DNA from: a virus
Direction: 5' to 3' (one strand)
Virus record (IMG/VR): IMGVR_UViG_3300002231_000759
Location: 5,416 to 38,915 of that record
Length of the DNA: 33,500 nucleotides
Shown here in pieces: positions 4,484 to 30,782 of this stretch. The notes beneath the pieces were generated by a model that searched no databases, was not told where the DNA came from, and saw only the letters and a program-made list of their open reading frames with translations. Both the position numbers and the translations under genes were made by a program. How positions within the stretch are numbered: the stretch's first letter is position 1; every line of letters starts with the position of its first letter.

Positions 4484-6355
4484 ATGTTAGCACTAGACAT
4501 AGAAACAGCACCAGAGCAAGGACACCCAGAAGAATACGCACTCCAACCTTGGAGACTCATCGAAGGCAAGGCGCGTATCTCCAATATCGCGATTGCCAAA
4601 GACACTGGAGAGTCTATGCTAGTTACTAAAGGCTATCGCACGTTGCTGCATAGCCTTGCAGGGTCTGACGTGTACACTTGGAACGGTGTGTTCGACGTGG
4701 CTTGGCTCATCGCGGCAGGTTACTGGAACGAAGTTAAAGCAATTAGATGGCACGACGCCATGTTGCTGTGGAAGTGGGGCAGCAATTCACAGCGAAAAGA
4801 ACTGATGCCTGCATGGTCGCTTGCTGATGGAGCAAAGAATTTTTTCCCTAAAGAGACTTGGCTTCCAGGTTTTATAAAGATGAAAGAATCTAACCACGAA
4901 GCCGGTGACGACGATAAGTATTGGGAGATGCGTGCAAAGTTAGATGCTATAGTCACAGCGAAGATTTCGGTTGCAGCCACGGAGAAACTAACTCCGAAGC
5001 AAATACACTCTGCGGCTATTGAGTCAGAGACCATCCCTGAAGTAGCCAGATCCTGGGTGTGGGGTGTCAAGGTAGATTACGACTTAGTCACAGAAGTCTT
5101 GCCAGTCATTACCAATGAGATGTGCGAGATCGAATTCAGACTTGGTGTTAGCAACGCACAAAACGCTACAGAGTCAGCCTTGTTCGTCACTGATCCAGCC
5201 ACATGGACTCCAAGCAAAGTATTGCGTAGCCCCAAGCAGTTAGGAGAGTTGCTGTATGTAAAGTGGAAACTTACACCTAAAGATTTCTCAGATAAAACCG
5301 GAGCCCCTAAAACAGACAAGGCCGCACTTACCTATCTGGCGGATCAATTTGACAAGTGCATTGAAATTCTACGATGGAGAGAACTTAATACGCAACTTAC
5401 GAAGTATTTACAATCGCCATTAAAAGCGCGAGAGTATTTAGGGTCTGATATCGTACATCCAGCACCTAAGATCTTCAGCACCTACACAGGACGGTTCACA
5501 TACGCTAGTAAAACCCAGCGCAAATACCATACAGGTATAGCACTCCACCAGTGGCCGCGTAACAAAGAGTTTAGACGTTTAATCGCACCACCTGAAGGGT
5601 ATAAACACGTTGAATTTGACGCGGCTGGGCAAGAGAGTAGGATCATGGCGCACCAGTCAAACGACTTAGCGATGGTTGAAGTGTTTAAATCAAACAAGAA
5701 GTTCCACGCGATGACAGGTGCTAAAATATCTGGCATGAGCTACGAAGCGTTCATGAAAGGTCGTGAGGCTGGTAACCAACAGATCAATGGCGAGCATGGA
5801 CTTTACTACCAAGGGAAGTTTATAAATTTAAGTTCTAACTTCCGCATAGGTACAAAGAAGATGCGTATCCAAGCCAGAGTTCAATACGGTATGGACGTAG
5901 ACTTTTTGACTGTACGTGGGTGGCAGGACGCGTTTGCACGTGCCTATCCTGGCGTAAAAATATATTGCGGTGACGCCATTAAACGCGCACAAGCAACTGG
6001 ATACGCGGAGACACTAGGAGGACGCAGGTTTCATTTAAGTAATTGGAGTAAAGAATATCGCTGGGGAACAGAGAGTTCAGCGATCATGACTCCTATCCAA
6101 GGTACAGGCGCTGATATGAAGAATTTGGCGCTGCGTGAGTTATCCCGCCACTACCCTGAGTTTATATTTATTTACGACTTGCACGATGGATTGCATATGT
6201 GGGTTAAAAACGAAGTGCCGAATAGCACGTTAATGGAAGCACGTGATATGCTAGATACTATGGACTATGAAAAAGAGTGGGGTGTGCAAGTACGTATACC
6301 ATTGACGTGGGATGTATCTGTAGGACCTCGCTGGTCAGAACTGGAGGAATTGTGA
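4484..6355 (+). CDS. DNA polymerase, family A, with 3'-5' exonuclease domain
   Basis: A 623-residue replicative polymerase starting at the base after the primase stop, with GGAGG at 4468-4472. The exonuclease domain shows LALDIETAP (D5, E7) and YTWNGVFDVAWL. The polymerase domain shows motif A FDAAGQESRIMAH (Asp379), the O-helix stretch GKFINLSSNFRIG (444-456), PIQGTGADM, and motif C LHDGLH (Asp568). Aligned by eye on Lys445, the residue equivalent to E. coli Phe762 is Leu449, Tyr766 is Phe453 and Gly767 is Arg454; motif C has HDG rather than HDE. There is no 5'-nuclease domain, as in other phage polymerases of this size. The overall call is firm; the residue equivalences depend on a manual alignment. 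Confidence 0.92.
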   Translation: MLALDIETAPEQGHPEEYALQPWRLIEGKARISNIAIAKDTGESMLVTKGYRTLLHSLAGSDVYTWNGVFDVAWLIAAGYWNEVKAIRWHDAMLLWKWGSNSQRKELMPAWSLADGAKNFFPKETWLPGFIKMKESNHEAGDDDKYWEMRAKLDAIVTAKISVAATEKLTPKQIHSAAIESETIPEVARSWVWGVKVDYDLVTEVLPVITNEMCEIEFRLGVSNAQNATESALFVTDPATWTPSKVLRSPKQLGELLYVKWKLTPKDFSDKTGAPKTDKAALTYLADQFDKCIEILRWRELNTQLTKYLQSPLKAREYLGSDIVHPAPKIFSTYTGRFTYASKTQRKYHTGIALHQWPRNKEFRRLIAPPEGYKHVEFDAAGQESRIMAHQSNDLAMVEVFKSNKKFHAMTGAKISGMSYEAFMKGREAGNQQINGEHGLYYQGKFINLSSNFRIGTKKMRIQARVQYGMDVDFLTVRGWQDAFARAYPGVKIYCGDAIKRAQATGYAETLGGRRFHLSNWSKEYRWGTESSAIMTPIQGTGADMKNLALRELSRHYPEFIFIYDLHDGLHMWVKNEVPNSTLMEARDMLDTMDYEKEWGVQVRIPLTWDVSVGPRWSELEEL

Positions 6356-12006: not shown

Positions 12007-12157
12007 TTAACGAGAAAGCTTAAAAGTTACTACGTTAAACCCTATCACTAATTGGACTCGACGTTGCATCTCTGCCACGTCTGCTTCATCTCCAAGTACC
12101 CCTGCCCTGCTTGACCATGTTCTTCAACGTGGTCTTGCTAGGCTTCCATGTTGGCAC
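12007..12157 (-). CDS. Small hypothetical protein, 49 aa, frame break at G4 run
   Basis: Downstream of the giant virion gene the - strand is open in two frames. The first reads VPTWKPSKTTLKNMVKQG from a GTG at 12157; the second reads VLGDEADVAEMQRRVQLV then IGFNVVTFKLSR and stops at 12007. They join if the C4/G4 run at 12099-12102 has one base less. An internal ATG (Met14) is an alternative start. The reading depends on the inferred indel, so it is tentative. Its end lies one base from the stop of the convergent HTH gene. Confidence 0.4.
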
Positions 12158-12158
12158 C

Positions 12159-15100
12159 TCACCAGCCGATCAGTGCATCGATATTGCCTTGGTTAACTCT
12201 CGTAGATTTAAGCATAGATCTAATATCTTCCTCAGCGACATCCGCCTTCGCAGCTGCTTTTACGATCTTAATCATCTGCTTAAATGCTTTTTCTTTAGCG
12301 TTTCTGGTGCGCTTGTATGCATCCTGCAAGTCTGATTCAGTCACAATATTAGGGTCTCGCATTTGTCGCTTTAAGATGCTTCCTGCACTTCGACTTATAT
12401 CGTTGAACTCGTACGCTCGAAACTTTAACGACACACGAGGATCAAAAGTTGTCACTCGCATACCTACAGCGCCAAGTGCTTCTGACTGAACTGAATAGAC
12501 CTGACCTGATGGACTTCTCTCACCTTTATAGGCTTTATAAAATCGGTTGCCAACACCAACAAAACCTGGGTCCAATGTGGTAGCTAGATACTTTAATATC
12601 TCTTGCGTTTTCTTCGCGTCTGATTCAGCAGGGTTGTATACCTGCGCGCCTGATGGCTTCCTGTTTTTATATGTATCAACAGCCGCACCAAACATAATAT
12701 CTCTGCCAACAAAAGGTGCGAACGTCTCCTCCATCGCGGAGCCAAACGCCTCTGCTAAATCTATTTGACCATCTTTAGCTCTGAGAAGAGCATTAATAGG
12801 TCGCTTAAGCATGTTATAAGGGTCGATAAACGATAGATCTATAAACTCTATGTTTCCGTCAGCATCGTGTCCCATTGGAAGTATATTAGAGTTACGGTTC
12901 CAAGGTGCTGAGAGTAATCTGATAGCCTCCTCATCGTCGTCATCGAGTCCTAGAGCTGCGAACGCGGCCAGCTGCAACGCATAAATACTTGCGCCAGCTC
13001 CTATGATCCCACCTATTTTATGTCGTGCATACTCTGGGTGTTCTGCGTAGTCATTGGCTATAGCTTTCCACTTATTTGCCGTAGTGCGAATGATCTCAGC
13101 CGAAAACGTAGGGAACGTACTTACGACAACGTTCTGACGAAGCCACTTAACACCTAACCCTGTTAGAGAATATGTTGGGTACTCATCACGAATCTTATCT
13201 GCTGCGTCTTGTTCGATACGGTCCAGTAACTTTTTTGCGTCAGCTTTAATCTTCATACTGACGCCTTCAGCCTGTGCATCCTTTAAAAGTTGTTGGTCTT
13301 CAGTTGAAAGCTTCTTATCTATGATCAAACGAACTTCATTATCCCAGCCGACCATTTTCCAAAAATCGTCACCGAATCTGTATAAAGTCTCCGCGAGTTT
13401 TATCGTATTTTGAACGCCAGTTACAACTGGGTTATCAAACTTTTCTAGAAAAATATCAAAGTTTGAATCCGCTAAGTTATCCATAAACTCGCCTGCGTGA
13501 ACCGCATCGTGCATAACCCCTAGTTTAACTAGTTTCAGTATATGCTGATGCCGCTCTTCTCGGGTTCTTAGTCTGAGCTGTCCACCCTCAGACTTCCAGC
13601 CAGTGCCATGACCTACTAGAGCTTTTCCATCTTTCTGTACAAGCATAATCCGGCTTACAGCGCCAGCCCAATCATAATGCCCAGCGCCTACCGCAAACAA
13701 AGCACCTGATAAAAAGTTGCGTGACGTCGTAACTGGAGACAGCACAGTCTTGCCAAACTTTACTGCGCCGTTAATAAGCACCGCCTTACGCATCAAGGGG
13801 GAGAAATTATTCTTATGTAGTATATCCTCAAGTGCCAAGTTGATATCTTTATCGATCGACATACCACTAAGAGGCGCGTAGGACGTATCCGTCTTAGACG
13901 CTATAGTGTCGAACTCTCTATCTATAGGCTCATGCCCTTCTTTCCACAGCCAATTTTCTTCTTTGGAGGTGCCAATATCTTTTAACTTATTCAAGAACCT
14001 TTCGTTGTAGACTAAGTTACTTAACAGCGTAGCTGATTTCGTATACATAGCTCCAATTTCTTCGTATTCTCCAAGCAGCGCTTTCACTTCAGGTGCTAAG
14101 GCTTCGTTTTTCTTTTTTAAAATACTAAAGTCACGCTGACCTACTTTATGCTCTTTAATGTATCCAGACAGCTTGTCGTACGCAGTGCCTTTCTCAATCA
14201 CACTCCGCATAGTTCGCCACGCTTTTTCGTGGGCAGCCTCTGCGTTGATCCCAGGCATGATCTTTGTGACATCGTCAATAAAATCTTGGTGCCTGTCAGC
14301 TTGGTTGTTCAACACTTCAATACTCGCCACTACGTTGTCGAACGCAGCTTGAGCCTTCGCATCTAAGCCACTTCGGACTGCAGCCAGAGCTTCTTGTGAT
14401 GGGTTAGGTGTATGCAACAACGCAACCACTTCTGGATCTAACTTAGCTTCGTTTGTCTTAAGCGACTTCTGAAGTTTTTGTTCATAAATTCTGCGTTTAA
14501 AATACATCGTGGCTGCGTCTTGAGTCGTGTCGTCAACCTGAGACGCCCAGTCCTTTACGTCGAACGCTTTGTACGATGCATGTAAATATCTACCAAGTTT
14601 ACTCCTAATAGTCTCTTGAAGTTCTTGTCGTTGGAGTACCAATTCAATTCTAGGCAACAAGCTTGCAGGTACGTCTGCTATCAGATCCTCAATATCTTCA
14701 TAGGTGGTGTTTGGATTCATAAGCACTTCGACAACTTCAGGGTGTTTATCTGCCATCGAGTCCAGCACATCATCGATCGTCACTTGAACATTTTTAATGT
14801 ACTCGTTCGACAAATAATCTATCTGGTATCGCATCATCTTTAAGTCAGCTTGGATATCTTCAGATAGTGAAGACATAGCATCTTCGTCTCCTTGAAGTGC
14901 CGCTACAAGTGTCTTATTAACTTCAGGAGAAACGCGCTTTAATTTTGTAGCGCCGTACTTTTCAGCAACGTCCTTAGTTAATTCTGATAGTCTATAAGCC
15001 TGCTCTCTCTCCTCAACGTTAATATCCGTGTCCCGATCGATCTTAGCTCTGAACGTTTTGTCGGACAGCAAACTTTGAGCTAACATAACGCGTTTGCGCA

Positions 15101-15677
15101 TTTTACTAATTTTCTGTTTATTAGTTTTAGACCTACCACCAAGCGTAGACTTGACACCAGTTGATTGCGGCCAAACAACATTGTCTTTTTTGTTTATCCT
15201 TTTTGATGGTGGCACGTATGGCGGACCTCCAGGTGGGCCTTTTGGAGGTTCTTTAGGAGGCTTGACATCTTTTCCTAATTTAGTAGTAGTTGCAGACGCG
15301 CCAACTTTAGGTGGCACCACCATAGAGCCTTCAAGTGGTTCTATAGTAGACTTAGGTTCCACTGTTTGTGACGCTTCGCTCGTTCCTCCGACAACTTCCT
15401 GAGTCTGTGCTGGCGGTGTCGGTTGCTCCAATTTTGACGTATTTGTCGTTGCTGCAAGCGGCGTGGTCTCATCGCGTACCCTCTTAACGGTTACGCCTTG
15501 ACGCTCTACTTTACTGACGATGTCAGAAAGATCAGCATCAAGACTATTAATGTACATGTTAACAGCTTCTATATCAGACACACCTTGATCTTTATATTTA
15601 TTGATTTTAGCGATGTCTGACTTATTTAAGTCTTTACCTCTACGTTCAAACTTTTTTATACATCTAGCCAAGCTCAT
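12159..15677 (-). CDS. Giant polyvalent virion protein, likely ejected/internal
   Basis: A 1172-residue protein, ATG overlapping the previous stop (TAATG). The N terminus MSLARCIKKFERRGKD resembles the start of other phage large polyvalent proteins. A Thr/Pro-rich linker contains KEPPKGPPGGPPYVPPSKR (142-160), followed by long helical regions. A segment FGKTVLSPVTTSRNFLSGAL and, near residues 885-910, the hydrophobic GGIIGAGASIYALQLAAF may insert into membranes. Then APWNRNSNILPM...GNIEFIDLSFIDPYNMLKRP matches, from memory, a signature of ejected internal proteins in podovirus-like phages. I infer a role in DNA delivery, like T7 gp15/gp16. No lytic transglycosylase motif is visible. Confidence 0.65.
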   Translation of the reverse strand: MSLARCIKKFERRGKDLNKSDIAKINKYKDQGVSDIEAVNMYINSLDADLSDIVSKVERQGVTVKRVRDETTPLAATTNTSKLEQPTPPAQTQEVVGGTSEASQTVEPKSTIEPLEGSMVVPPKVGASATTTKLGKDVKPPKEPPKGPPGGPPYVPPSKRINKKDNVVWPQSTGVKSTLGGRSKTNKQKISKMRKRVMLAQSLLSDKTFRAKIDRDTDINVEEREQAYRLSELTKDVAEKYGATKLKRVSPEVNKTLVAALQGDEDAMSSLSEDIQADLKMMRYQIDYLSNEYIKNVQVTIDDVLDSMADKHPEVVEVLMNPNTTYEDIEDLIADVPASLLPRIELVLQRQELQETIRSKLGRYLHASYKAFDVKDWASQVDDTTQDAATMYFKRRIYEQKLQKSLKTNEAKLDPEVVALLHTPNPSQEALAAVRSGLDAKAQAAFDNVVASIEVLNNQADRHQDFIDDVTKIMPGINAEAAHEKAWRTMRSVIEKGTAYDKLSGYIKEHKVGQRDFSILKKKNEALAPEVKALLGEYEEIGAMYTKSATLLSNLVYNERFLNKLKDIGTSKEENWLWKEGHEPIDREFDTIASKTDTSYAPLSGMSIDKDINLALEDILHKNNFSPLMRKAVLINGAVKFGKTVLSPVTTSRNFLSGALFAVGAGHYDWAGAVSRIMLVQKDGKALVGHGTGWKSEGGQLRLRTREERHQHILKLVKLGVMHDAVHAGEFMDNLADSNFDIFLEKFDNPVVTGVQNTIKLAETLYRFGDDFWKMVGWDNEVRLIIDKKLSTEDQQLLKDAQAEGVSMKIKADAKKLLDRIEQDAADKIRDEYPTYSLTGLGVKWLRQNVVVSTFPTFSAEIIRTTANKWKAIANDYAEHPEYARHKIGGIIGAGASIYALQLAAFAALGLDDDDEEAIRLLSAPWNRNSNILPMGHDADGNIEFIDLSFIDPYNMLKRPINALLRAKDGQIDLAEAFGSAMEETFAPFVGRDIMFGAAVDTYKNRKPSGAQVYNPAESDAKKTQEILKYLATTLDPGFVGVGNRFYKAYKGERSPSGQVYSVQSEALGAVGMRVTTFDPRVSLKFRAYEFNDISRSAGSILKRQMRDPNIVTESDLQDAYKRTRNAKEKAFKQMIKIVKAAAKADVAEEDIRSMLKSTRVNQGNIDALIGW

Positions 15678-16042
15678 TAATCGACTTCCTCTAGGAATGC
15701 AGCAATGATCATTAAGATTTCTTCGTCCTCGCGTAAAATGCGCGTATGTAGTTTAAAGTCTGGCGCACTACTTCCACCGCGTAAGTTGCTATCCGTCGCC
15801 GTAACTTCAACACCATCTCCGTTATAGTAGTCCGATGCGTAGTAGTTACTTTGGTAATGGTTGGACGTATAGTAAAAATCGTCGTTCGCAGCAACTGCAC
15901 CATCGCCATTGTAATGATCACTAGCGTAGTGGTTACTTTGATAGTGGTCAGCGGTGTAATAGAAATTATCTCCGGCAACCGCGCCTTGCGTATAGTGGTT
16001 GGACGCGTAAACATTACTTGCATAAAAATTTGACCCGTACAC
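15677..16042 (-). CDS. Tyr/Asn-rich tail-associated protein, GTG start
   Basis: A 121-residue protein from GTG 16042, directly behind the previous stop (TAATGTG). It is rich in Tyr, Asn and Ser, with SNHY/SDHY steps, and carries two copies of a 29-residue unit (from FYYTADHYQSNHYASDHYNG to FYYTSNHYQSNYYASDYYNG). The C terminus LREDEEILMIIAAFLEEVD is hydrophobic-acidic. Low-complexity Y/N/S proteins of this kind occur among phage tail fibres and adhesins. An ATG at 16044 opens another frame of 110 codons with an implausible Thr/Arg-rich product. Confidence 0.55.
   Translation of the reverse strand: MYGSNFYASNVYASNHYTQGAVAGDNFYYTADHYQSNHYASDHYNGDGAVAANDDFYYTSNHYQSNYYASDYYNGDGVEVTATDSNLRGGSSAPDFKLHTRILREDEEILMIIAAFLEEVD
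15788..15963 (-). repeat. 87-bp tandem duplication (29-residue unit)
   Basis: The FYYT codons of the two copies lie 87 bases apart (F codons at 15964-15962 and 15877-15875). Similarity is clear at the protein level and partial in DNA, so the duplication is not recent. Confidence 0.7.
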
Positions 16043-16043
16043 A

Positions 16044-16801
16044 TTATGTACTCACAACCGTAACAGCGGTTCGCTGACCATTTGAATCTGTAGTCGCGGT
16101 AATTCGGTCGGCACTATCTGCTGCGTTCCTAAATGTTACCGTCGTCCCAGAAACTGCCACCTTACCGCATGACTCTGATCGCATAAGTCGTAGTTGCTAG
16201 TTCAAATGTCTCACTGTTCTCTATAACGTAGGTGAAGATATCGTTCAAGCTTATGTCGTTCAGGTTAGTGCTAGCAGTTAAGGTGCGAGCTGCTGTAGCC
16301 CATGCTTTGTCCGCCGCCACTTGTGTAATATCCACTAAACCTGTAGTGGCTGCTATTGACATATACACCAAAATTAGACGGCGCGCTAGCTGCGAGTAAC
16401 GCGCTATCAGTGCCTCGCATGTCAGTATTGCTTGTGACGGTATCGACCGCTCCAGACGTTGTAGCTAACGTATCACCTGCTGATATCTTAGGGCGGTATA
16501 ACTCAAACGTACGTGTTACTGGAGCCATTGACGCTTGAGTTATATGCAAAACAGAACTCCTCCGAGTCGTTTCCAGATCCTATTGTCATATCTTCAATCT
16601 AAAAGAAGTGACGTATACCCCCGGCATATTTGTCGCGTCTAACTCCGCGACTGTAGGAGTCGTGTATGCTGTCGCAGTACCTCCATTTCTTGATCTGTAC
16701 GCAGTGAAAGTAGTGAGCCCTGATTCGCGTGTTTCTAAATCTGTAGCGTCAACTGCAACAAAGTATATGACTTGATCCGTAACACCACTTGGAATCCTCA
16801 T
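16044..16801 (-). CDS. Tail-associated beta protein, broken into four or more frames
   Basis: Repaired, this is a 251-residue protein. The first frame (16586-16801) reads MRIPSGVTDQVIYFVAVDAT through TNMPGVYVTSF; then IEDMTIGSGNDSEEF; then LHITQASMAPVTRTFELYRP; then VYMSIAATTGLVDITQVAAD; then KVAVSGTTVTFRNAADSADR, ending at 16044. In phage proteins I know, the segments MRIPSGVTDQ, NMPGVY, DMTIGSGNDSEE and HITxxxMAPVTRTxELYRP occur in one chain. The breaks are at T16600 (one base missing) and at AAAA 16548-16551, AAAA 16370-16373 and CC 16165-16166 (one extra each, + strand letters). The usual role is a baseplate or tail-fibre-associated structural protein. Five segments in 758 bases means either poor sequence here or a decaying gene. 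Confidence 0.6.
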
Positions 16802-16983
16802 TGTAACTTGCCTCCGAGTCTCGCGGCTGCCAGTTGACCAAAACCCCTGTCAATACTCTGCACCGTAGTTAGTTTTTTCGTAGATGTAATACCGCTCGCA
16901 GCTTTAGGGCTAAACGACTGTTTCCTACCTACCCCTGAGTACCGCCTACCGACTTGAGTCTTCTGACTACCTGAAAGCGCCAT
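16798..16983 (-). CDS. Small basic protein in tail operon, 61 aa
   Basis: A 61-residue Arg/Lys/Ser/Gly-rich protein (starts MALSGSQKTQVGRRYSGVGR). It starts in a TAATG overlap with the tail protein upstream and ends in an ATGA overlap with the next gene, so it is locked into the operon. It has no hydrophobic stretch and no recognised motif. It could be a small structural or chaperone protein. Confidence 0.6.
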   Translation of the reverse strand: MALSGSQKTQVGRRYSGVGRKQSFSPKAASGITSTKKLTTVQSIDRGFGQLAAARLGGKLQ

Positions 16984-19971
16984 TACACAAGCCTCGCAGT
17001 GTGTGAACTAGTGACTGCTGTTGTAACTGCTGTAATGGTTGCGACCTTAGTGCTACCAACGTAGTCCGTAATGTCAGTTACCTGCTGATTAAGAGTTCCA
17101 GCATTAAATACTAGCAAGCGACCGTTGTAGAAGTCGTCGGTGCTGCTAGCAGCTACGCCGTCTACGTTCCCTAATGTACGCTGTTGTAGTAGTACCCGCA
17201 GTAAACGTCACCGGGACCGCAGTGGCTGCGTTGTCAGTGATGTACAGCAACTCCGCCGCTGTCGGTGTGCGCAGTTCAAACTCGGAAACTGTTGGTATAT
17301 CAGCGATATCTGCAGACATATCAGTACCTGCAGGAGTCCCAAGCTTAGGCTGCATGTCAGCGGTGTCGGCCAAGATTGAAGCTACATCGCCACCTTGTAT
17401 AGCGCCAGCAATATTTAGTGTGGGCGACCCTGTCCTATTATCTGTAACGGTCTTATATATTCCACGTATCTCTGTAGTTCCATCCGCCCCATTTAGTGTG
17501 ACTGTTCCAAGTTCACCGCCGATAGTAAGTGTATCGCTACTCGTAACCCCAGATTGAGTTAGACCACCGGAAAACCGTCTATACTCTGCGGTCATCGTAC
17601 CGAGCCCAGTGCGATTGAACGTAGGAGCGCCCGACCCTGCTACAGTGCTATAGCAATCTACAAACGTGTAGTCGCCAGCCCCGTTCTGCGTCACCGTATC
17701 TCCGAACCCGCATTGTTGTGCTACACACGGTATAAGAGTTGTTGTGCCAAATAAACAGTCCTCGAAAAATACAGCTGAACCCGTCGTTGTGGCAACACCA
17801 CTGACACTACCAAACCGAGAGAATACGCTGCCTCCGATGTTTTGCGTCCCGAGTGCTAGTACAGCCCCATTACCGTTTACATCGTAGCCTTCAAAATCTG
17901 CATCTAAGGTTAAGGTGCTACCAGGGTACACTTCTACTTTTTTCAATCCTAAGTTACTCAAGATGCTTTTTAGCGCAGTGACAGTTGAAACAGGGTTAGA
18001 CGCTACGCCATCTACACCTGTAATGGTGCCGGTGTTGGAAGCTGTACTGTCGAACCATACTGCACCATTTGAATAACCCTCACTTCCCTGGGAAAAGGCT
18101 ATGAACGCCTGATCCACTTTAAAATTAGCTGACGTGAGCGCTGTATCAATTGTGCCGTTGTCGTTATAAAACCGGATGCGGACGTTGCCAAGGTTAGCGC
18201 CAGTGCCAACGTATTGAGTAAACAGTGTGAATACAAATTTTTGGTTCGTAGATGAATTAGACCCGTTGATAGACCCAACTGTTTTAAATGAACTGGCCGT
18301 GTAGTCGTAAGCTTGTACCCGTATCGAGTCGTTGCCACCTTGCAAGTACCCTGAAACCTCAAGGGATTGCGGCACCCCACTGCCAAGGTTCGTGGTTAGC
18401 TCAACGTCCATGCCGCCAGATACAGTGGAGAAATCCAAGTAGGTTCCATCCAACTCCTCAGTGTCGCTGTACGATCCACTTGTCGCCGTTACTGGAGTTG
18501 TCAGTGTCTCCCCTGTGAACTGCTTGTGTGTAGCAGCACCTACGTTGGCAATGCCTGTTACCTGCGACTGTTTAGCTGGGAAATCGTCGCCAGACAGCCC
18601 TGTCCCATCGTATTGGTCCTCAAGATTGCCCAAAGCGGTAGCATTTAAAGCGGTGAACTCTGACGATGTAATTGCACCTGCAGCTATCTTAGCCGCAGTG
18701 ATGGCATCAGTGGCAATCTCTGTGGCTCCGATGGCACTCGCAGCGATGCCGTCTGCAGTTATCCAGTCGGTAGGTATCGTAGGCAAGTTGCTTAAGTTCG
18801 TAACATCTGCGGTCGCTGTCACACTATCAACTACACCCGCGGTCGTGTTAATGGCAGTGCCATCGCTGACGATATCTGTAGCCACTAGTGTCGACGCTGC
18901 ATCTAACGTGGTCTGAGAGGCTGTTCTTAAATCTACGTTACCGCCATGACTTAAGTAGTACTTGGACCCTGATGCAGGGTTAGTAATCCACGCAGGTTCT
19001 ACCGTTGCTTGCTTAGTAGTCACTGCGTAGTCAACAATCAATCGTGACTGCCCAACACCTGTACCACCTACAATCGTAACGTACATCCCATTATAGATAT
19101 CTGCTACTGCTGATGCGGTCGTATCCAGCGTGATAGTGGTTGCGCCTCCTGCCGATGCAGTTCCCGCGTCCGCTTTATTGTTCGCGAGTCCAAATGAGTC
19201 ATCAACTTGGTGGTCAGATTGCAGTTCGTCCCACACCGCGTCTGCGATCTCCGCGACTGCATCAGCCGCAAGTTCAGAAGCGCCGATGGCATCTGCTTGG
19301 ATGGACGTAGCTGTTATCACGTTTGTCCCAACCGAACTGACAGCACACCCTGCGGCTCCTGTTATCTCTACTGCTGTCAATGCACCTGCGGCTACTTTAG
19401 CATTGGTGATAGCACCAGTAGCAATCGATGTTGCAGTAATAGCACTTGCATCTATACTCTCTATGTTCACATCTGGGTTGCCAGCACTGGCTGTGGTAGC
19501 GTTGTCAGCCCAGTATGTAGTGTTTACATCTGGAACCCCTGTCTGTGCGGGAGTTGGAAGCACCCCACCAGCAAAATACGTGACATCAACTTCTGGAACA
19601 CCCGCAGTGGTGGGTGTAGCGACCGCTGTACCATTCCAGTGAGTTACATCTACCGTCCTATCAAGTCCATCAGTTTGTGGGTACATTACAAGCGTTGTGG
19701 TTTTGGCATCTGTGGTAGTTGTCTTAACAATGACGACTACTGTGTCCGCATTCATTTCTGTCGCTGTAAGATCTAAGTAGTAAACGCCACTAGACGTTGC
19801 TATTTCAGTCGCTTCCGCTGTAACATCCGCGAACGCTCCTGCGTCTTTAGATACCTCAGAGTCAAGTGCAGCAGCACCACTCACCAACGATCCGGTATTG
19901 TCTAAGATGGGGAACGTCACCCGGAACGCTTGGTTCTTTACAGGAAACGGTGTCGCGTCTGTAGCTGCCAT
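16983..19971 (-). CDS. Large tail fibre/adhesin-like protein, 995 aa after repair
   Basis: The main frame runs from ATG 19971 (SD GGAG in the end of the upstream gene) to a stop at 17146. The C terminus continues one frame over as VDGVAASSTDDFYNGRLLVF...VATITAVTTAVTSSHTARLV to 16983; dropping one base of CCC 17169-17171 joins them. The N terminus (about 1-110) is a beta domain, followed by Thr/Pro/Val repeats such as TTAGVPEVDVTYFAGGVLPT and then A-I-x-x-x-x-I-A repeats. The middle (from about 560) looks like a right-handed beta-helix of the pectin-lyase type. This layout fits a trimeric phage fibre or a host-recognition protein. No enzymatic motif is seen. Confidence 0.7.
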
Positions 19972-20661
19972 TTAAAATACTCCTGGGTTGCCAACAAATG
20001 GCACCCCTCCAAATCGTTTTATATAAGGGTGTTCAGCCGTACTTGCCGCTGCCTCTTGCATTGACCCTGCAACTATGCCCCAAAATGTCGAGCCAATAGA
20101 AATATCAATTGTCGGTGTACCACTAGCTCCCGCCTTCTTAAACATCACCATTGAATCCAAACCGGCGTTGTTATCTTCATAATGCACTTGAGTTACACCA
20201 GTTCCCATCGTCGGGTCCGTGTTCCAAAAGTTACTCGCGGCTATCAGAAGGTCTGTTGTGGACGATGATACGGTCGTAGAAGGTGAAGTACTATTGCCTA
20301 TCGCGGTACTAGATGCCCTGAACGGTGTAGTCTGGTCTACACCTGAGAAATTAGCTGCCCCTGCGGCCTGTTCAGATTTTGCCGCTGTAACAATCTCAAC
20401 CGAGTATGTTCCAGCCGTTGGCAAATCAGTAGCTAACATGTAATAAATTGCTACTCGACCATCATCAGCATTGATTGTTGTACCTAACAATGTCATAGCA
20501 ACTGCGTTAAACTTCGCACTACTGAAAGTTGTTCCGCCACTTCTCCATGCCCCACAACCAACAATTAATATATCAGTAGCTGCTGTAGTCGTGTGGTTGA
20601 AAGACAGTGTCTTAGTATTTAGTGATTTACCAGACGTTGTGCCGACTTCACTTATTGCCAC
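19972..20661 (-). CDS. Beta-sandwich structural protein of tail region, GTG start
   Basis: A 229-residue protein beginning at GTG 20661 (TAGTG overlap; SD AAGGAGC). It is rich in Thr, Ser, Ala and Gly, with regular beta strands: TLSFNHTTTAATDILIVGC, FNAVAMTLLGTTI, ANFSGVDQTTPFRASSTA and STFWGIVAGSMQEA. The pattern (hydrophobic strands, an N-F-S-G-V-D-Q-T-T-P-F step) resembles jelly-roll domains I know from phage tail proteins. It probably decorates the tail. Its stop is followed directly by the ATG of the large tail protein. Confidence 0.55.
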   Translation of the reverse strand: MAISEVGTTSGKSLNTKTLSFNHTTTAATDILIVGCGAWRSGGTTFSSAKFNAVAMTLLGTTINADDGRVAIYYMLATDLPTAGTYSVEIVTAAKSEQAAGAANFSGVDQTTPFRASSTAIGNSTSPSTTVSSSTTDLLIAASNFWNTDPTMGTGVTQVHYEDNNAGLDSMVMFKKAGASGTPTIDISIGSTFWGIVAGSMQEAAASTAEHPYIKRFGGVPFVGNPGVF

Positions 20662-20942
20662 TATGCACGCTCCTTAAGCGCACGCTTATAAATTTCGTAC
20701 AAACCACCAACGCCGTTGCCTGTAGGCCCATAAATTTCTTTCTCTGTGATCGAGCCTCCACCAATATAGGCCGCAATTTTTACAAATATACCTACGATGT
20801 CGTGCGCGCCGTAAGGATAAATTTTCTGGCCTAACAAGGTGGTGCCGTCATACAATCTAATGCCCATTGCTTTGCTTACTGTATCGTAGCGGAACATAAC
20901 TCTGTGAAGTCTAAATGTAATTTCTTTGCTGCGGTACGCCAT
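20661..20942 (-). CDS. Hypothetical tail-operon protein, 93 aa
   Basis: A 93-residue protein, ATG in a TAATG overlap with the gene before it. The N-terminal half is beta-like (KEITFRLHRVMFRYDTVSKA, IRLYDGTTLLGQKIY), the C-terminal end helical and basic (LYEIYKRALKERA). I recognise no family. The context between a secreted protein and tail proteins suggests a virion or assembly role. Confidence 0.55.
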   Translation of the reverse strand: MAYRSKEITFRLHRVMFRYDTVSKAMGIRLYDGTTLLGQKIYPYGAHDIVGIFVKIAAYIGGGSITEKEIYGPTGNGVGGLYEIYKRALKERA

Positions 20943-21304
20943 TACTGAACAACCTCCAATTTAATGAATATAGGCTTACCGGGAGCCAGCAGCATATGAG
21001 GTGGTTCACCAGGAGCAGACCAGTATGCTACGTCGCTTGGTTCACTCTCATTAGCCGCGTTACCTGCAACCACATAGACGCTGAGCGCATTTGTGTCATC
21101 AGGGCGAGAGAATAGGATCTCACCGTTGGCGTCTAAATCTCCTATCACCTCAGAAACTCCGTCAGTCGTAGCGTAGGCACGCATGTACTCTACTGGACCA
21201 CCGTCAGTACTCGGTGTCGCAGTGACTTTGAAATCAAGAGCTTGGAGGTGTGCTGCGAGTGCCGTCAATATAGCCACTGTTAGTCCAAATTTAAATAACT
21301 TCAT
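20942..21304 (-). CDS. Secreted FN3-like protein
   Basis: A 120-residue protein with an N-terminal signal peptide (MKLFKFGLTVAILTALAAHL, likely cut after LQA at 22). The mature part resembles one fibronectin type III or Ig-like beta domain (DFKVTATPSTDGG, ALSVYVVAGNAANESEPSDV). There is no lipobox. Export to the periplasm next to a holin candidate could make it part of the lysis set, but spanins have no FN3 fold, so an envelope-interacting or virion role is as likely. The ATGA overlap couples it to the gene before it. Confidence 0.55.
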   Translation of the reverse strand: MKLFKFGLTVAILTALAAHLQALDFKVTATPSTDGGPVEYMRAYATTDGVSEVIGDLDANGEILFSRPDDTNALSVYVVAGNAANESEPSDVAYWSAPGEPPHMLLAPGKPIFIKLEVVQ

Positions 21305-21519
21305 TTAGCTCGCTCCAGTAGTTCTTCAAGTTTGGTTTCAATAGATTTCTGCTTTCCCCAATTACCACTTATCAACTTATACCCTGTGTGGATCAGCTTC
21401 ACCTTTTGGATTACTTTAGGGGTGCCTATAACAGCAGCTACCTGCGGGAAAAATAGCCCTGCCAATACAGCTGAAATCGTGTCTTGGTGTGCAATCAATA
21501 AATCTAATAGTGTATTCAT
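21301..21519 (-). CDS. Small membrane protein, holin candidate
   Basis: A 72-residue protein with SD AGAGG. Residues 14-33 (ISAVLAGLFFPQVAAVIGTP) are hydrophobic enough for one membrane span, followed by a Lys-rich region and the charged helix KSIETKLEELLERAK. Size, single span and charged tail suit a class III-like holin, and the M15 endolysin of this phage needs one. No signature proves it; a small structural membrane protein is the alternative. Confidence 0.45.
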   Translation of the reverse strand: MNTLLDLLIAHQDTISAVLAGLFFPQVAAVIGTPKVIQKVKLIHTGYKLISGNWGKQKSIETKLEELLERAK

Positions 21520-21528
21520 AATTAACCT

Positions 21529-21873
21529 CTACGTTGGTATAGCCTTGACTGTCTTTAAAGACCTATCCTTGTGGCGTGTAATCTCAAATTTATACACTGT
21601 CTTTGGTTTGTTCATCATAGCCTCGATCCTTGTGGCTAGTGTGTCAATTGATTTAATTATAGGCGACATATCCACGTTTGGGGAGAGCGCTGGATTCTGC
21701 ACTGCGTCAACTAATTTATTTAAACCTTTCACTACCGCCTCTTTACTATCAGAAGACGCCTCACGTATAGCCCCGATGATCGCATCCATATCAATATCGT
21801 CAGCATCAGGCTCAAAATCCAGTCCGTCGTAGCGGTCCTCCTCCATCTCCTCGGCTGTTCTTACTCGATTCAT
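21529..21873 (-). CDS. Acidic hypothetical protein, 114 aa
   Basis: I chose ATG 21873, which overlaps the stop of the polyvalent gene (ATGA) and has AGAGG 9 bases upstream; a TTG at 21882 would add three residues without a better signal. The N terminus is very acidic (EEMEEDRYDGLDFEPDADD), the middle helical (KEAVVKGLNKLVDAVQNPAL), and the C terminus basic (YKFEITRHKDRSLKTVKAIP). The last part looks like a strand-rich cap. No family is recognised; similar acidic-helix-basic proteins occur next to virion genes. Confidence 0.55.
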   Translation of the reverse strand: MNRVRTAEEMEEDRYDGLDFEPDADDIDMDAIIGAIREASSDSKEAVVKGLNKLVDAVQNPALSPNVDMSPIIKSIDTLATRIEAMMNKPKTVYKFEITRHKDRSLKTVKAIPT

Positions 21874-24800
21874 GTCAAACAACCTCTTAATTTCTCTGCT
21901 ATATTACGCTTTCTTGTCGTTTTATCCCATAGTTTCTGAGCACTTATAGTCCCTGTCACCGATTTTCCGTTTTTAATGCCGGTGTGATGTATCCTAACAG
22001 TTCCAAAATCCTGCTTGGTCAAAGGCTTAGCGCCCGCCACCTCTGCTTCTTTTGTAGCAGCTTCTGCAGCAATAGCTGACTGTTTAGCTGGCATCGCAGC
22101 GATGCCTTCGTCTTGAGCAACTTCAACAGCTTGCTCTCTAAGCGCGTCCATCGCCTCTGGATCACCCCGTACTGCGCTCTCAGCCATGTCAGCATCAGTC
22201 GCATATTCAGTCACAAGGTCACTTAAAATTGTGTCGTACGTAGGCGCTGCAGCGTCAGTAGCACTGGCTGGCTGGTTCTCAGTCGACACTCCTGTGGATA
22301 TTGATTTTGTAGTATCTCCAGTCTCAGTCCATGTTTTAAATTCACTAGACGACATTTCAGTCACAGGGCCTACAGCCCACCCACGTTCATAATTTGACTT
22401 ATACGCTGCAACCGCTTCAGATTCAGTGGTGAACCCCAGCATCACTTTATGCTCATCAAACTTTCCATTTGTATCTACTTGGTTTATGACAAATACCTTG
22501 TCACTTTCTACTTGGTCTCCAACAAATACATCAATAGCGTCTCCATCCGCGCCGATAGTGCCTTTTATATCTCCATAGTGGTGTTTAAGAGTCCGTTCCC
22601 AAGGATTTGCAGGATCTTTGCTTTTGCGTATAGATCCTTTCGGGTTTTCGATGGCTATATCAAGGCCCTTAAGTGTGATATGGCCTTTCTTGTAGTTATC
22701 AGTCTTTGATTTGAGCGTCAGTAGGCTCGGGAAGATTATTAGTTGGTGACGCCGCCGCTTTGTTAGCTTCTGCGTCCAACTCATCAATATACTGCTGCTC
22801 GTCTAAATACGCGTTCCTGTCTGCCTCCATTGAGGCATCACCTCTATTTACAGAGTACACGTTAGTTCCAGACAACGTCTTAAATACTTTATCCGACAAC
22901 TGCGCGTTTCGTGCTACACCACTGATGTAGCCGTATTGCTCCAAAGATTCAGCTGCATCGTCTAATGACACACCACCTTCTTTAGGGAATATTGGACGTC
23001 CTTGGTATCCACGCTCGTTGAAATGCGCTTCATCAATGCCCATAGATGTAGCGGCTTCGCGGCTTAGTCCTTGGCCTTTTGAAATAGCTGGTTTCAAAGT
23101 GTCTGTTTCGGAATCAATAGGCACTTCTTTTAAGCGTATATGTTTAGGTGACCTATCGACTGGCTGGCTTTCAGCATATCGTTTTGCAGCCACACTCTTC
23201 CAAGCTTGCCCTGACATACTACCGAACTCAGATATATTAGCATTCCGGTTTATCTGCCTATCAGTCAGCGACGGATCAGCTATTGATAACTCTGATTTAC
23301 GGTCTGCAACCGACATATTAACCCACGAGTCTTCAATATCTTTTCGGTTGTCAGTATAAAATTTGTGCTCTAAATCTGAAGCTTCTTGATGCCTAGCTGC
23401 CGCCTGTCTAACTAATTCTTGTGCGTCTAATTCTGCCTGCATCCTTGCGTCTAATTCTGCCTTAGAATCTAGTTCTATTGACAGACCTCCTTTTGAGTTG
23501 GCCCAGCCAATAACACTGCGAATATTTACTTGAGACCCTTCAAATCCTTGCGGATTTTTTATTACTTTAGATCCTGGCTTTTTAACAGCGTCGGCCCAAG
23601 TCCCAAATTGCTGGTATGTAAGATCTCCAGCGTCTATCGCCGCCTCAATTTGTTCTCTGGACTTATAAGGAGCTAGTGTCTTGGCTAAGTCGTTTGACGC
23701 TATGATCCGTGCGTTGCGTTCTTCTTTAGTTCCTGACTGAATTATTCCAGCATCCTTTGCCAGCGCTTTAGTCGCTTTCTGCGTCATACCTTCGAGTTTA
23801 GTTGCAATGCGTTCAGCTTCAGACTCGCGCTTCTCAGATGTATATTCTGTAGCAACTTTTTTGTATGTAGGCTTATCAGCTGCTCTCTTTTCGTCTTTCT
23901 TCTGCTCCATTGCAGGCTTAACGTCTTCAATATCAACTTGTTGTTGTTGATTTGAAAACAGACCACCATCGATATCCGCAGGTACGTCTTCAGTACCTTT
24001 AAGTTTTTCGTCTATTTTTGCTTGTGCATTGGCTATAGATTGACGTTGTGGCTGCGCGCCAAACATATAACCCTGAGTTTCAGTAGGAGCCACATTAGTA
24101 GTTGGCTGGTCTAAATGATCGTTTTTAAACATATCGTATTCATCTTGAGATACGGTTAGAGCATCAAAGTCTTCCGCATCGAAAAGTTCTACGTCGTTCG
24201 CAATTGCATCAAAGTCTTCTGCATCGAAAAGTTCTACGTCGTTAGCTATAGAGTCTAACTCGGCAGCTGCTGCGTCGTCAGCCGCTACAATTGCGTCTGC
24301 ACCTAACTTCTCTTGTCATATCTAAGATTTTAGTGGACGTATCACCTACAGCACCTCCCTCCTGCTCCATCAAGTCAAGATGTTCGTCAATCGTCTCCGG
24401 GTTTTCTTGAGTCTGTGGAGACATTTGGTCAGGAAGGGGGCTAGTAGGCTCCGTGCTTTGGATCACCTCCTCTGGGTTGTTGACAATATCTTCAGCGAGT
24501 GCAGCCATTTGCGGATCTACTGACGCTGTTTGATCGGCAGGATTTCGAGGTGCGTTTGGATCTGTTGGACCAGCAGGATTTTGAGGTGCGTTTTGGTCAC
24601 TACCACCTAGATCTACGGTATTTGGACTCTCTGAAGCTGGTTTAGACATAACACCCGCCGCACCACCGAATACACCACCAGCAGCGCCAAGTCCTGCAGC
24701 CTCTCCGACTCCCTGCATAGTTTCTTGAGAAGGGTCTACTTGCTGGGTGGCGATGTTCGCCGCAGCTGCTCCAAAACCTTCTTCACCCGCTTCAGATATT

Positions 24801-25603
24801 GCTTCACCTGCAAAGCCCTTTAGACCTTCAACCAGTCTAGATTTTCCAGGCAGCTTGGTGCCACCAAGCGTCTTTTCTAATATCCCAGCACCTGGAAGCA
24901 TATTAAGGCCGACTGATATAATTCCAGATGCAATAGCCGCATTTTGAGATAGTGCTAGCGCTTTATCCGCTTTTGCAGCTTCCCTATCCGTAGCGTTGGC
25001 GATTTTAGGATCTACATCCCACATCTCATCTGGTAGTGCCATTAAACTTTCAAACGCAGACGCGCCTGCATCAGCACCTTGCATCGCAGCGCCTGTGCCA
25101 ACAGCTGCGGCAGTGCCAGCTTTGAACGCTGTACCCTCTGCGAAGCCTTTCGCCAGCAATCCAGCTTTAGCGCCTCGACCTGCCAAGCCTATTGGAAGCA
25201 TCATTGGAAGCTGTTCTGCAATGAACGACGCAAGAAGTTGCGGGTTGGAAACCGTCTCCCAAAACGAAGTAAGTGCTTTATCGAAAGTACCGTCTGCAGC
25301 TTCAACCTTAGCGTCTCGAAGCGCCTCTTGGTTTAAAAGATCTTTTGATTTATGTGCTGCTAGTTGCTGTGCCCACTCACCACCTTTAGCAGACGCAAAA
25401 TTATCCATATCACCAAATGGTGAGAGACCGTATATATCACCAACAGTTTTAAGTAGACTCGCAGCCCCAGACTCGAAGCTGACCACAGTGTCAGCCGCAA
25501 AGTCTGTCGCTCCATAGTCTTCACCATCGTAACCAGCGCTCTGGTCTGCTTGCTGGTATGATGAGCTTTCATTGGAGAATAGGTCATCGTTTTCGTAGGC
25601 CAT
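21870..25603 (-). CDS. Giant polyvalent virion protein with pyrophosphatase-like domain (3 frames joined)
   Basis: Repaired length is 1243 residues. Piece 1 starts MAYENDDLFSNESSSYQQAD (SD AGGAG) with Ala/Gly-rich hydrophobic stretches at about 120-180 and 215-240 that could cross a membrane. It runs into piece 2 after TKILDMTRE, where one surplus base lies in AA or TT at 24305-24309; the frame continues GADAIVAADD and then MFKNDHLDQ. Piece 2 ends SPTNNLPEPTDAQIK; one base fewer in TTT 22705-22707 continues it as TDNYKKGHITLKGLDIAIEN. That begins a domain (about 970-1090) matching the inorganic-pyrophosphatase-like domain I know from phage polyvalent proteins: HYGDIKGTIGADGDAIDVFV, FDEHKVMLGF, EFKTW. 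I infer an internal protein ejected into the host. Confidence 0.65.
24161..24250 (-). repeat. 45-bp tandem duplication
   Basis: Two copies of a 45-base unit (starting GCATCAAAGTCTTC on the + strand at 24161 and 24206) differ at only a few positions. They encode D-V-E-L-F-D-A-E-D-F-D-A-I/L twice in the polyvalent protein, in the frame that links its first two pieces. Confidence 0.9.
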
Positions 25604-25618
25604 TAAGTATTAGTTCTC

Positions 25619-26788
25619 CTAATTATTTTGAGACTGTAAAATGTTGTTCAGTGTTCTAGTTGCTTTTCGCCTCTCACCTGGAGTTATATTTGGGTCGTTT
25701 GTCATACGTTTTAGAATATCTAATTTACTTTTACCTGTAGCTCGTTGCTCGCGTATAACTTTAGATCCTAACGACTCACTCATAGATCCTTCAGCTACTT
25801 TAGGTGTTCTTGATGCTGCTTCATAATCTATCAAAGATTTAGCATCTGCTGTTTTAGTTGCTTGATTTTCTCTTGTCCACTCTTGCTTTTGAGCTGCTTG
25901 CCGTGACTGTGCGGCTCGGTACGCTTCACTACGTCCTGCGTTAGACACTGCATCCTGCATGTCTCGTCCACGTCTAAGTGAATCGGTGCCTCCACTAGGT
26001 GGGCCGCCACTTAGTCCAAAGAAGCTTGTGGTTGACTCACCTTCCGCGTCGTATCCAGTAGTTTTTGCCGTTATTTTTCAAACAACTGAGCACGTCGGTC
26101 TGTAGTACCTAAAGTCTTTATAAACTGCAGCCTATCCTGCTCAAACCCAGCCGCAGCTGCTTGCCTCCCAAGCGCTTGATCAAATTCTTGCGAACTCCGT
26201 TCACGCCACTGATCCTGTTTTAAATTTAAATTGTAAATCTCTTTAATTTGGTTGTAATCTGACAGTTCTTTTTTGTTCATTAAGTCTTGCTTCCCCTCCA
26301 TTATATGAAGTGTACTTCGCAGCTCCGCCATTTCTTTCGCGCCTAACTTCTCATGGTCCATAAGCCGCATTTTACTATCTTCAGATCTTTTCTCGCCTAA
26401 AATTTTAAACCTGTTATTTAGGTACATCTCGGTTTCTTTGTTCGACGCTCTTTGGTCAATCTGCTCACTAACATCTTTGGCTCCTTCAGATTGAGACTCT
26501 AGCCTATGTTTTTGCAACTGCTCTTCTTTTTGCGTCTGCCGTTTAAACTCTTGTTCGTCTCGAATTTGGTCACGTCCAAATTTAACAGTATCTCGTTCAG
26601 TTTGGCGTGTGTACGCTGTATCTGACGTCTTGAGTCCCGCGCTCGTATGCTTTGTCAGCTGCGTCCGTTCGGTACGAATTTTGTAAGTCAGCCAGACGCT
26701 TAGTGCGTTGCTCTTCAAGCGCCATAGTTCCTACTTGCTCTGCGCCTCTTCCTATACCTGCGGCGATGCGACTTATTAGCCCACTCAT
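25619..26788 (-). CDS. Helical virion-type protein, 389 aa after joining 3 frames
   Basis: Frame 1 reads MSGLISRIAAGIGRGAEQVG to DKAYERG; the next reads LKTSDTAYTRQTERDTVKF and ends GTTDRRAQLFEK; the last reads TAKTTGYDAEGESTTSFFGL, then MQDAVSNAGRSEAYRAAQSR, and ends at 25619. One base fewer in CCC 26636-26638 and one more in TTTTT 26074-26078 give a single frame. The product is a nearly continuous charged helix (Gln, Glu, Lys, Arg), likely a coiled coil, with a Gly-rich hinge before the last third. It sits between two virion genes and resembles the internal core proteins of T7-like phages in character only. Confidence 0.55.
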
Positions 26789-28379: not shown

Positions 28380-30782
28380 TTATGCTGTACCTTCAGCTTC
28401 TTTAGCAGCAACTGCATCAGCAAACATTTGCCAGAATGCAGTTGCGTCTGCATCAAATTGATCTAACTCCTCCTGAGAGTACGTAGTCCCAGAAGATGTG
28501 GAAGCTGGTGGCGGAGCTGCTGGGCCTTCGATCGGTGCTGCCACATCAAGTTTTGATGCCGTCATTAAGTCGGGGTTTTCATCCAGCACACGTTGCATCT
28601 CGGCTTGAATCTCTTCTTCAGTGCGCATATTAGACTCTGGCTCTCCAGCTGGCCCTAAATCTGCAACTGCGTTATTCGTGGCTGCGTCCCGTTGCTCTTG
28701 ATCCGTCATTTTTTCGTTAGTATCTTCTGCGCCTGTACTTAACCACTCAGTTCTGACCCATCCTAAATCTACGTCCCCAACTACATCCATCGCATCTAAA
28801 TACAAATCCATAGACGCTTGAAGCGCTGATGATGCTGCTCGCTGTTGTGGCTCAGACATTGTATCGTCTTGATAAATCTTAGTAGACTCAGTCATAAAGT
28901 TTCGATAAATATCAGCTGCAAGCAAATTATTTTGAATGATATTTTGATGATCCGCGGACGTATCCTCAAGCCACATACGGTATTGAATATCAGTCATTTG
29001 AGACGCTTCTTGAAATTGCTGACTGGCGTCTAACAACTCTTTCTTAGCCGCCGTGTCCATGTTAGCCATCCATCGCTCGTTAAACTGCGTTTGATCGTTT
29101 TCTTTGGATTGCCAAGCTTGTTGCTCCTTCAGCAAGTTCATTTCAGCCATAAGTTCACCGGCTTTAATGAACCCATCAAACTCATTTTGAGCTTTCTGCA
29201 TATCGTTTTCATGTTTCATCGCAGCTGCAGCAACGAACCCATCATATGCTTGTTGGTCATCTTGCATAGTCTGAGCAGCTTCAAGCTGTGCGTCTTGAAG
29301 TTCTCTGTCCGCCACAACTTGTGTATTCTTCAATGTTTGGTTTGCAAATAATTGTGCGTTGCTGCGTAGCTCTTCAGATTTTAACTGGGCCTCTAATAGT
29401 GTCTTCTTGCTATCAAGATCGTAGCGATTTTGGAGCGCCTCATGGTCTCGTTGCTTCTGAGCTATTTCTTCTCTAGACGTCAACTCTGCTAGTAAGTTTT
29501 GAGAATCTGCGTCTAGCCTATCTCCTTGAAGAACAGATTGAGATTTAAGCTCCCGTAATTGCAATTTGTCGTCAGATGATAGCTGGTTAGCATGCAGTGT
29601 AGCTCTCGTTGATAGTTCATCCAACGCACGCTTTTCTTCTGATGTCAACGTAACATCAACGTTACGCTCTTTAGATTTAAGTGTCGCCATTGTCTGCCAT
29701 TCTGCAGAACTTAACGATTCAGTATGCATCTTCTCTCGGGACGACAGCTCATCCAAAGCACGTTTTTCTTCAGATGTCAGTGTGGCGTCTACATTACGAT
29801 CTTTAGACATTAATTGAGCTAAATTTATCTTCTCGTCTGATGTCAATGCCTCTGTATGCATCCGCTCCCTGGATACTAAGTCATTCAACTGCTCCTGTTG
29901 TTCAACAGATAATTTCTGTCCTTGCAAATAAACTGCATTTTGGAGTGACGCCATTAGCTGCCGCTCTGCAGAGTTTAATCCTTCAGTGTGTATTTTAGAC
30001 CTAGACTCCAAGTCGTTTAACTGCTTTTGCTGATCTACAGACAACGCAATACCTTGTACGTAGCGTGCATTTTGAAGTTGGTACAACAAATTCTGCTCAT
30101 TAGAATCTAATTCTTGTGTAGCAAGTCGCTGCTTCGACTCCAAATCATTTAACTGTTTTTGCTGGTCCGCAGTTAATTCAGCCCCTTTAATATCACGTGC
30201 GTTTTGGAGCTCTAGCAATAAATTGCTTTCAGTCGCAGTCAGCGCTTGAGACTGTAAATTAGTTTGCAAATGAGCACCTACATTAGTCTGGCGTTCAGCA
30301 CTAGCTAACGTCGCGGCTCGATCAACTAGTGGCGTCATATATTGCAACGCAGCGCCTTCAGCTGCTCGTTCGCTAAGCGTAGACTCGCCCATTCCCCTAT
30401 CTTGCGCTGATCTAGCACCCTGCGCCCTAGCTAGTGCGAGATATGGAGAATTTGACTGTGCTAATGATACAAGCCCTGACGACATGTCGTTGGAAATTTC
30501 TTGTTGCGTCTTAGGTGCTAGTGGGTCAGTCGTTTTAGGCGCTCCTGAACCGCCATCCAACGTTCCAAGGTCAATAGGGTCTGCGTCTGTGCTTAGAGGT
30601 GCCACTCCTGGATCAGTGCCCGCTCCTGTTGTTGGAGGTGCGTCGCCTGTCGCTGTGTCTATAACAGTTGAAGACACTGGATCTTGCACAGTCGGTGGCT
30701 CCAACTCAGGAGGTGTCGTCGTATCTGTAGTCACTGTTTGGAACGTCGGATCTTGGTTTGAAAGTGTTACTAACGCAACCAT
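28380..30782 (-). CDS. Long helical-rod virion protein with six 44-residue repeats
   Basis: An 800-residue protein. The N terminus (1-95) is Thr/Pro-rich and disordered. Residues 180-443 are six tandem units of exactly 44 residues (consensus: x-L-x-S-x-E-x-x-L-L..., then L-S-x-x-Q-Q-K-Q-L-N-D-L-E-S-R...H-T-E), each divisible into two related 22-residue halves. A period of 22 equals two hendecads, which favours a long straight, weakly right-handed coiled coil. The helix continues to about 620 with other sequence (KSEELRSNAQLFANQTLKNT and onward). No enzyme motif is present. I infer an internal core or tail-tube rod; its length and place among virion genes support that. GAGGGT precedes the ATG. 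Confidence 0.65.
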   Translation of the reverse strand: MVALVTLSNQDPTFQTVTTDTTTPPELEPPTVQDPVSSTVIDTATGDAPPTTGAGTDPGVAPLSTDADPIDLGTLDGGSGAPKTTDPLAPKTQQEISNDMSSGLVSLAQSNSPYLALARAQGARSAQDRGMGESTLSERAAEGAALQYMTPLVDRAATLASAERQTNVGAHLQTNLQSQALTATESNLLLELQNARDIKGAELTADQQKQLNDLESKQRLATQELDSNEQNLLYQLQNARYVQGIALSVDQQKQLNDLESRSKIHTEGLNSAERQLMASLQNAVYLQGQKLSVEQQEQLNDLVSRERMHTEALTSDEKINLAQLMSKDRNVDATLTSEEKRALDELSSREKMHTESLSSAEWQTMATLKSKERNVDVTLTSEEKRALDELSTRATLHANQLSSDDKLQLRELKSQSVLQGDRLDADSQNLLAELTSREEIAQKQRDHEALQNRYDLDSKKTLLEAQLKSEELRSNAQLFANQTLKNTQVVADRELQDAQLEAAQTMQDDQQAYDGFVAAAAMKHENDMQKAQNEFDGFIKAGELMAEMNLLKEQQAWQSKENDQTQFNERWMANMDTAAKKELLDASQQFQEASQMTDIQYRMWLEDTSADHQNIIQNNLLAADIYRNFMTESTKIYQDDTMSEPQQRAASSALQASMDLYLDAMDVVGDVDLGWVRTEWLSTGAEDTNEKMTDQEQRDAATNNAVADLGPAGEPESNMRTEEEIQAEMQRVLDENPDLMTASKLDVAAPIEGPAAPPPASTSSGTTYSQEELDQFDADATAFWQMFADAVAAKEAEGTA
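29454..30245 (-). repeat. 132-bp tandem repeat, 6 copies (44-residue unit)
   Basis: The repeat is strong in protein and partly in DNA; units 4 and 5 (around 29586-29849) are the most alike. Unit phase is kept with no insertions, so the array spans six times 132 bases. Older copies have diverged, indicating a stable structural repeat rather than a recent expansion. Confidence 0.85.

What the first reader, a model, noticed from the sequence alone, without database searches (positions are those of the whole stretch)
12007..26788. Single-base frame breaks at homopolymers split at least five late genes
Ten breaks on the - strand arm (near 12100, 16165, 16370, 16548, 16600, 17170, 22706, 24307, 26076, 26637) interrupt open, sensible protein sequence. 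Nine sit on or next to short runs of G, A or T; eight need one base removed and two need one added. Long late genes at 12159-15677 and 28380-30782 are intact, as is the whole replication arm. A raw gene list would therefore report many false short proteins. Simplest cause: sequencing or assembly error in part of the molecule; the alternative is real mutation in the tail region.
Basis: partly seen in the sequence, partly recalled or inferred. Interest (0 to 1): 0.75.

Follow-up and report, generated by a model that had tools for sequence, protein, structure and literature searches.

The report
Sequencing indels break phage late genes
At least five structural genes of this uncultured phage look broken because the assembled sequence carries about a dozen stray single-base errors, nearly all one surplus base; relatives have the same genes whole, so this is a data-quality problem and not new biology.

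Summary
In detail: in 12.1-26.7 kb of the minus-strand late arm, single-base frame jumps split continuous coding sequence. A codon model finds them there and no comparable jump in the rest of the 52,312-bp record. Frameshift-aware alignment to homologues places nine of the jumps in genes that are single open frames in relatives.

Details need correcting. I count 12 indels. The site at 16600 is two surplus bases about 16 bp apart, not one missing base. A further surplus base near 12164 cuts the 3' end of the gene called intact (12159-15677). Eleven of 12 indels are surplus bases; only 26074 lacks one. The homopolymer link is not supported: distances to runs match random positions, and 21 of 22 runs of 5 or more in the region carry no break.

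Relatives do not share the splits. All 40 IMG/VR stretches matching a motif spanning two breaks have the in-frame length of 46 bases; the window has 48.

Best explanation: uncorrected, insertion-biased sequencing or assembly error in poorly covered stretches. Recent real mutation is unlikely; programmed frameshifting is excluded where homologues exist. Breaks at 24316 and 26074 rest on codon usage alone.

The parts
12013..15677 (-). ADP-ribosyltransferase-like or polyvalent virion gene (ORF 12159-15677 plus its cut-off 3' end); two surplus bases, near 12164 and 12106
   Evidence: 33% identity to vB_Pun_Y3 WPJ21803.1. Frameshift-aware alignment to Y3 and to L094 both put +1 shifts at 12164 and 12106. 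Homologues L093-L099 and Y3 have about 40-47 more C-terminal residues. Tail alone against Y3 C-terminus: 11 of 1000 codon shuffles score as high; a plain profile search of single frames found nothing.
16050..16801 (-). Adhesin-like gene D, split by five surplus bases (near 16612, 16596, 16553-16547, 16366, 16197-16172)
   Evidence: More than 60 IMG/VR homologues read through the conserved stretch in one frame; shifts located by alignment to L005, L029, L025, L052, L012, L016, L021; motif length 48 in window against 46 in 40 of 40 stretches
17004..19971 (-). Large adhesin or tail-fibre-like gene C, one surplus base near 17166-17178
   Evidence: L032, L043, L047 and L053 carry both sides in one frame; alignment shift at 17166-17178
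21870..25603 (-). Giant polyvalent virion protein gene with InPase domain (PF18823); surplus bases near 22707 and 24316
   Evidence: 22707: POI1126, Mwe-JY07 and douglas 12A4 read through in one frame. 24316: codon model only, score 170 with 0 stops in the new frame against -251 with 35 stops or worse in the others.
25619..26788 (-). Coiled-coil gene just upstream of the giant gene; surplus base near 26629, missing base near 26074
   Evidence: Codon model. The gene just upstream of the giant gene in L099 aligns across 26629 (score 67 against a shuffle maximum of 50); a gene in L094 gives a +1 shift at 26626. 26074: codon model only.
28380..30782 (-). Intact late gene (control)
   Evidence: Single frame throughout, no jump
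4484..6355 (+). DNA polymerase gene, intact (control)
   Evidence: Aligned over its length to Xp15 with no shift

Best explanation
The breaks are base-level errors in the assembled sequence. About 12 single-base indels, 11 of them surplus bases, were left uncorrected in three poorly supported stretches (12.1 kb, 16.2-17.2 kb, 22.7-26.7 kb) of an otherwise sound 52-kb phage record. The genes in the real phage are whole. Shown here: the frame jumps, their sign, their absence from homologues and from the rest of the record. Inferred: that the cause is the sequencing or assembly process, probably insertion-biased long reads or low-coverage patches.
For: Frame jumps are confined to 12.1-26.7 kb of 52.3 kb; uniform placement of 12 would give this with probability about 2e-7. 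Homologues read straight through at 12164, 12106, 16612, 16596, ~16550, 16366, ~16190, ~17175 and 22707. All 40 IMG/VR stretches with the motif around the two 16.6-kb breaks are in frame; the window is not. No ageing: segments downstream of breaks have no stops and broadly the same coding score per codon as intact genes (0.13-0.45 against 0.23-0.34). Eleven of 12 indels are surplus bases (P about 0.003 for a balanced process). PMC6487183 reports that PacBio subreads are enriched in insertion errors and that a polished long-read mock-virome assembly kept 22.78 indels per 100 kbp; 12 in 52.3 kb is about 23 per 100 kb.
Against: No reads or platform information were available. The errors are clustered, which needs a local loss of coverage that cannot be checked here. 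Long homopolymers in the same region are spared, which argues against a homopolymer-type error process such as pyrosequencing. No second record of the same phage species was found to compare with.
Confidence: 0.9

Rival explanations
1. Real, very recent frameshift mutations in this DNA molecule: a defective or decaying phage or prophage whose late virion genes have been inactivated.
For: The bases are as given, and the breaks fall in virion genes, which a decaying prophage could lose while replication genes stay intact.
Against: A dozen independent single-base indels in at least five genes with no premature stop by substitution in any segment and no loss of coding signal after the breaks. The other late genes are intact. 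Eleven of 12 in one direction. A virion-less lineage would not be expected to dominate a viral contig.
Confidence: 0.07
2. Programmed frameshifting or recoding: the phage makes each late protein by shifting frame at these sites.
For: Programmed frameshifts are known in phage tail assembly genes (general knowledge).
Against: Relatives encode the same proteins in one frame at nine of the sites. The sequence at the sites shares no visible motif. Five shifts within one short gene has no precedent known to me.
Confidence: 0.01
3. The pieces are truly separate small genes that overlap, as in many phages.
For: Phage genes often overlap by a few bases.
Against: Pieces on the two sides of a break match successive parts of one homologous protein. 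Many pieces lack their own start codon near the break.
Confidence: 0.02

Closest known systems
Indel errors in long-read viral metagenome assemblies (PMC6487183)
   Same: Scattered single-base indels, insertion-rich for PacBio subreads, that shorten gene calls in phage contigs; about 23 per 100 kb after polishing, close to the density here
   Different: Platform of this record unknown; here the errors are clustered in less than a third of the molecule
Gene-fragmenting errors in long-read assemblies of small genomes (Kastor, PMC12007338)
   Same: Frameshifts recognised by comparing with intact genes of relatives; insertion errors there are not tied to any particular homopolymer, as here
   Different: There deletions at homopolymers dominate; here surplus bases dominate
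Pseudoalteromonas phage vB_Pun_Y3 (OR779980.1)
   Same: Shares the ADP-ribosyltransferase-like gene (33%), adaptor and stabilization proteins
   Different: Its genes are whole; its giant gene and ADP-RT gene are adjacent, while here about 6 kb of adhesin-like and small genes lie between them

Membership tests
Assembly or sequencing indel artefact | Genes are whole in relatives | tested here: met
   for nine of 12 sites
Assembly or sequencing indel artefact | No coding decay downstream of the breaks | tested here: met
   zero stops in every segment, coding score broadly as in intact genes
Assembly or sequencing indel artefact | Reads disagree with the consensus or coverage is low at the sites | not testable with these tools
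   no reads held
   mean distance to a run of 3 or more is 9.2 bp against 10.3 bp at random; 21 of 22 runs of 5 or more in 15.9-26.8 kb unaffected
Programmed ribosomal frameshifting | Shift site conserved in relatives | tested here: not met
   relatives are in frame
Decaying prophage | Premature stops by substitution and relaxed codon use | tested here: not met

The most novel reading that the evidence does not exclude
The indels are real, and this DNA represents a defective phage population in which adhesion and ejection genes are selectively inactivated, for example a satellite-like or helper-dependent form packaged by an intact relative.
Probability: 0.02. Interest if true: 0.6.

Novelty: not a real feature. 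Interest (0 to 1): 0.1.

Why it matters
It matters for annotation only. An automatic gene list of this record would report false short proteins and would miss a giant InPase-bearing virion protein and two adhesin-like genes. It also shows that frameshift-aware comparison with environmental relatives can find and sign such errors without reads.

Tried and rejected
Same-species or close records: none by megablast against phages or by protein patterns for G1, helicase, G2, gene A and a late protein from L003 in viral contigs, so no direct contig-to-contig check. Relatives of the virus record are not drawn by the genome search. A plain profile of the ADP-RT C-terminus did not detect the tail in any single frame; only the frameshift-aware alignment did, and the tail alone is only moderately significant (11 of 1000 shuffles), so the two breaks at 12.1 kb are less certain than those at 16-23 kb. 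Homologues spanning 24316 and 26074 were not found. In one search two of the three comparison proteins were taken in the wrong frame; only the L099 row is used. In one search the per-codon value for 33498-31457 used a wrong frame and is disregarded. Homopolymer causation and programmed frameshifting were considered and rejected.

Full report
What the window is. The window is bases 5,416-38,915 of a 52,312-base virus record. The plus-strand arm carries primase, DNA polymerase, exonuclease and helicase genes. The minus-strand arm carries head, portal and terminase genes to the right of the window and adhesion, ejection or virion genes in the window. Its closest annotated relative for the late arm is Pseudoalteromonas phage vB_Pun_Y3, at about 33% identity for the best gene.

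Checking the observation. A codon-usage Viterbi model trained on intact genes finds frame changes inside continuous coding sequence at about 26629, 26074, 24316, 22704, 17179, 16601, 16557, 16364 and 16180, and a weaker one near 12107. No comparable jump inside a gene appears elsewhere in the 52 kb. In every segment between breaks in genes A, G, C and D the chosen frame has no stop and a positive coding score, while the other two frames score negative and carry up to 64 stops.

Using relatives. The piece at 16801-16586 has more than 60 homologues in IMG/VR. Nearly all stop matching at the same place, because the frame changes there, while their own ORFs (170-1098 residues where not cut by a contig end) run through the whole conserved stretch. 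A frameshift-aware protein-to-DNA alignment against individual homologues places one surplus base near each of 16612, 16596, 16547-16553, 16366 and about 16195 in this one gene. A degenerate pattern over the first two of these breaks, with free gap lengths, matched 40 stretches in viral contigs, all 46 bases long; the window matches it at 48 bases. The 17.2-kb break lies between two halves of a protein that L032, L043, L047 and L053 encode in one frame. The 22.7-kb break lies just before an InPase domain (PF18823), in a stretch that Ochrobactrum phage POI1126, Microcystis phage Mwe-JY07 and Vibrio phage douglas 12A4 read in one frame.

The gene at 12159-15677, reported intact, ends about 40-47 residues before its homologues do. 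Alignment to Y3 and, separately, to L094 gives the same two surplus-base positions, 12164 and 12106. The tail alone is only moderately significant (11 of 1000 shuffles score as high), so I rate these two as probable.

Weaker sites. The 26629 break is supported by the codon model and by a gene just upstream of the giant gene in L099 that aligns across it (score 67 against a shuffle maximum of 50). The 24316 and 26074 breaks rest on the codon model only, but with large margins.

Sign and context of the indels. Eleven of the 12 are surplus bases; only 26074 lacks one. The positions are not closer to homopolymer runs than random positions are, and 21 of the 22 runs of five or more in the region are unaffected. 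The title's link to homopolymers is thus not supported.

Cause. The pattern fits residual, insertion-biased base-calling or assembly error: confined to three patches, one direction, no loss of coding signal after each break, genes whole in relatives. A study of long-read marine viromes reports insertion-enriched errors for PacBio subreads, shortened gene calls, and 22.78 indels per 100 kbp left after polishing of a mock community (PMC6487183); this record has about 23 per 100 kb. The platform of this record is not known, and I could not map reads, so error against very recent real mutation is decided by inference, at about 0.9 to 0.07. Programmed frameshifting is contradicted by the relatives.

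Verdict. No biological novelty.

Noticed in passing
window 21870-25603 and 12159-15677: In vB_Pun_Y3 the giant DdrB-like gene and the ADP-ribosyltransferase-like gene are adjacent, and in L093-L099 the ADP-RT part lies within one very long ORF; here about 6 kb of adhesin-like and small genes (15677-21870) lie between the InPase giant gene and the ADP-RT-like gene.
   Followed up: partly
window 16050-16801, L005-L069: A widespread environmental phage protein family (N-terminal motif MRIPSGVTDQxIYFVAVDATDLKTRETGL) with highly variable C-terminal modules; in L043 and L047 counterparts of the window's genes C and D are parts of one gene. No match in the annotated phage collection and no PHROG or Pfam family for gene C, no Pfam for the D piece.
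   Followed up: partly
window 28380-30782: 800-residue coiled-coil-like late protein with repeated LTSEEKRALDELSSREKMHTE-like units; no match in phages.
   Followed up: no
window 1584-1658: A tRNA-Met (CAT) gene in the early arm.
   Followed up: no
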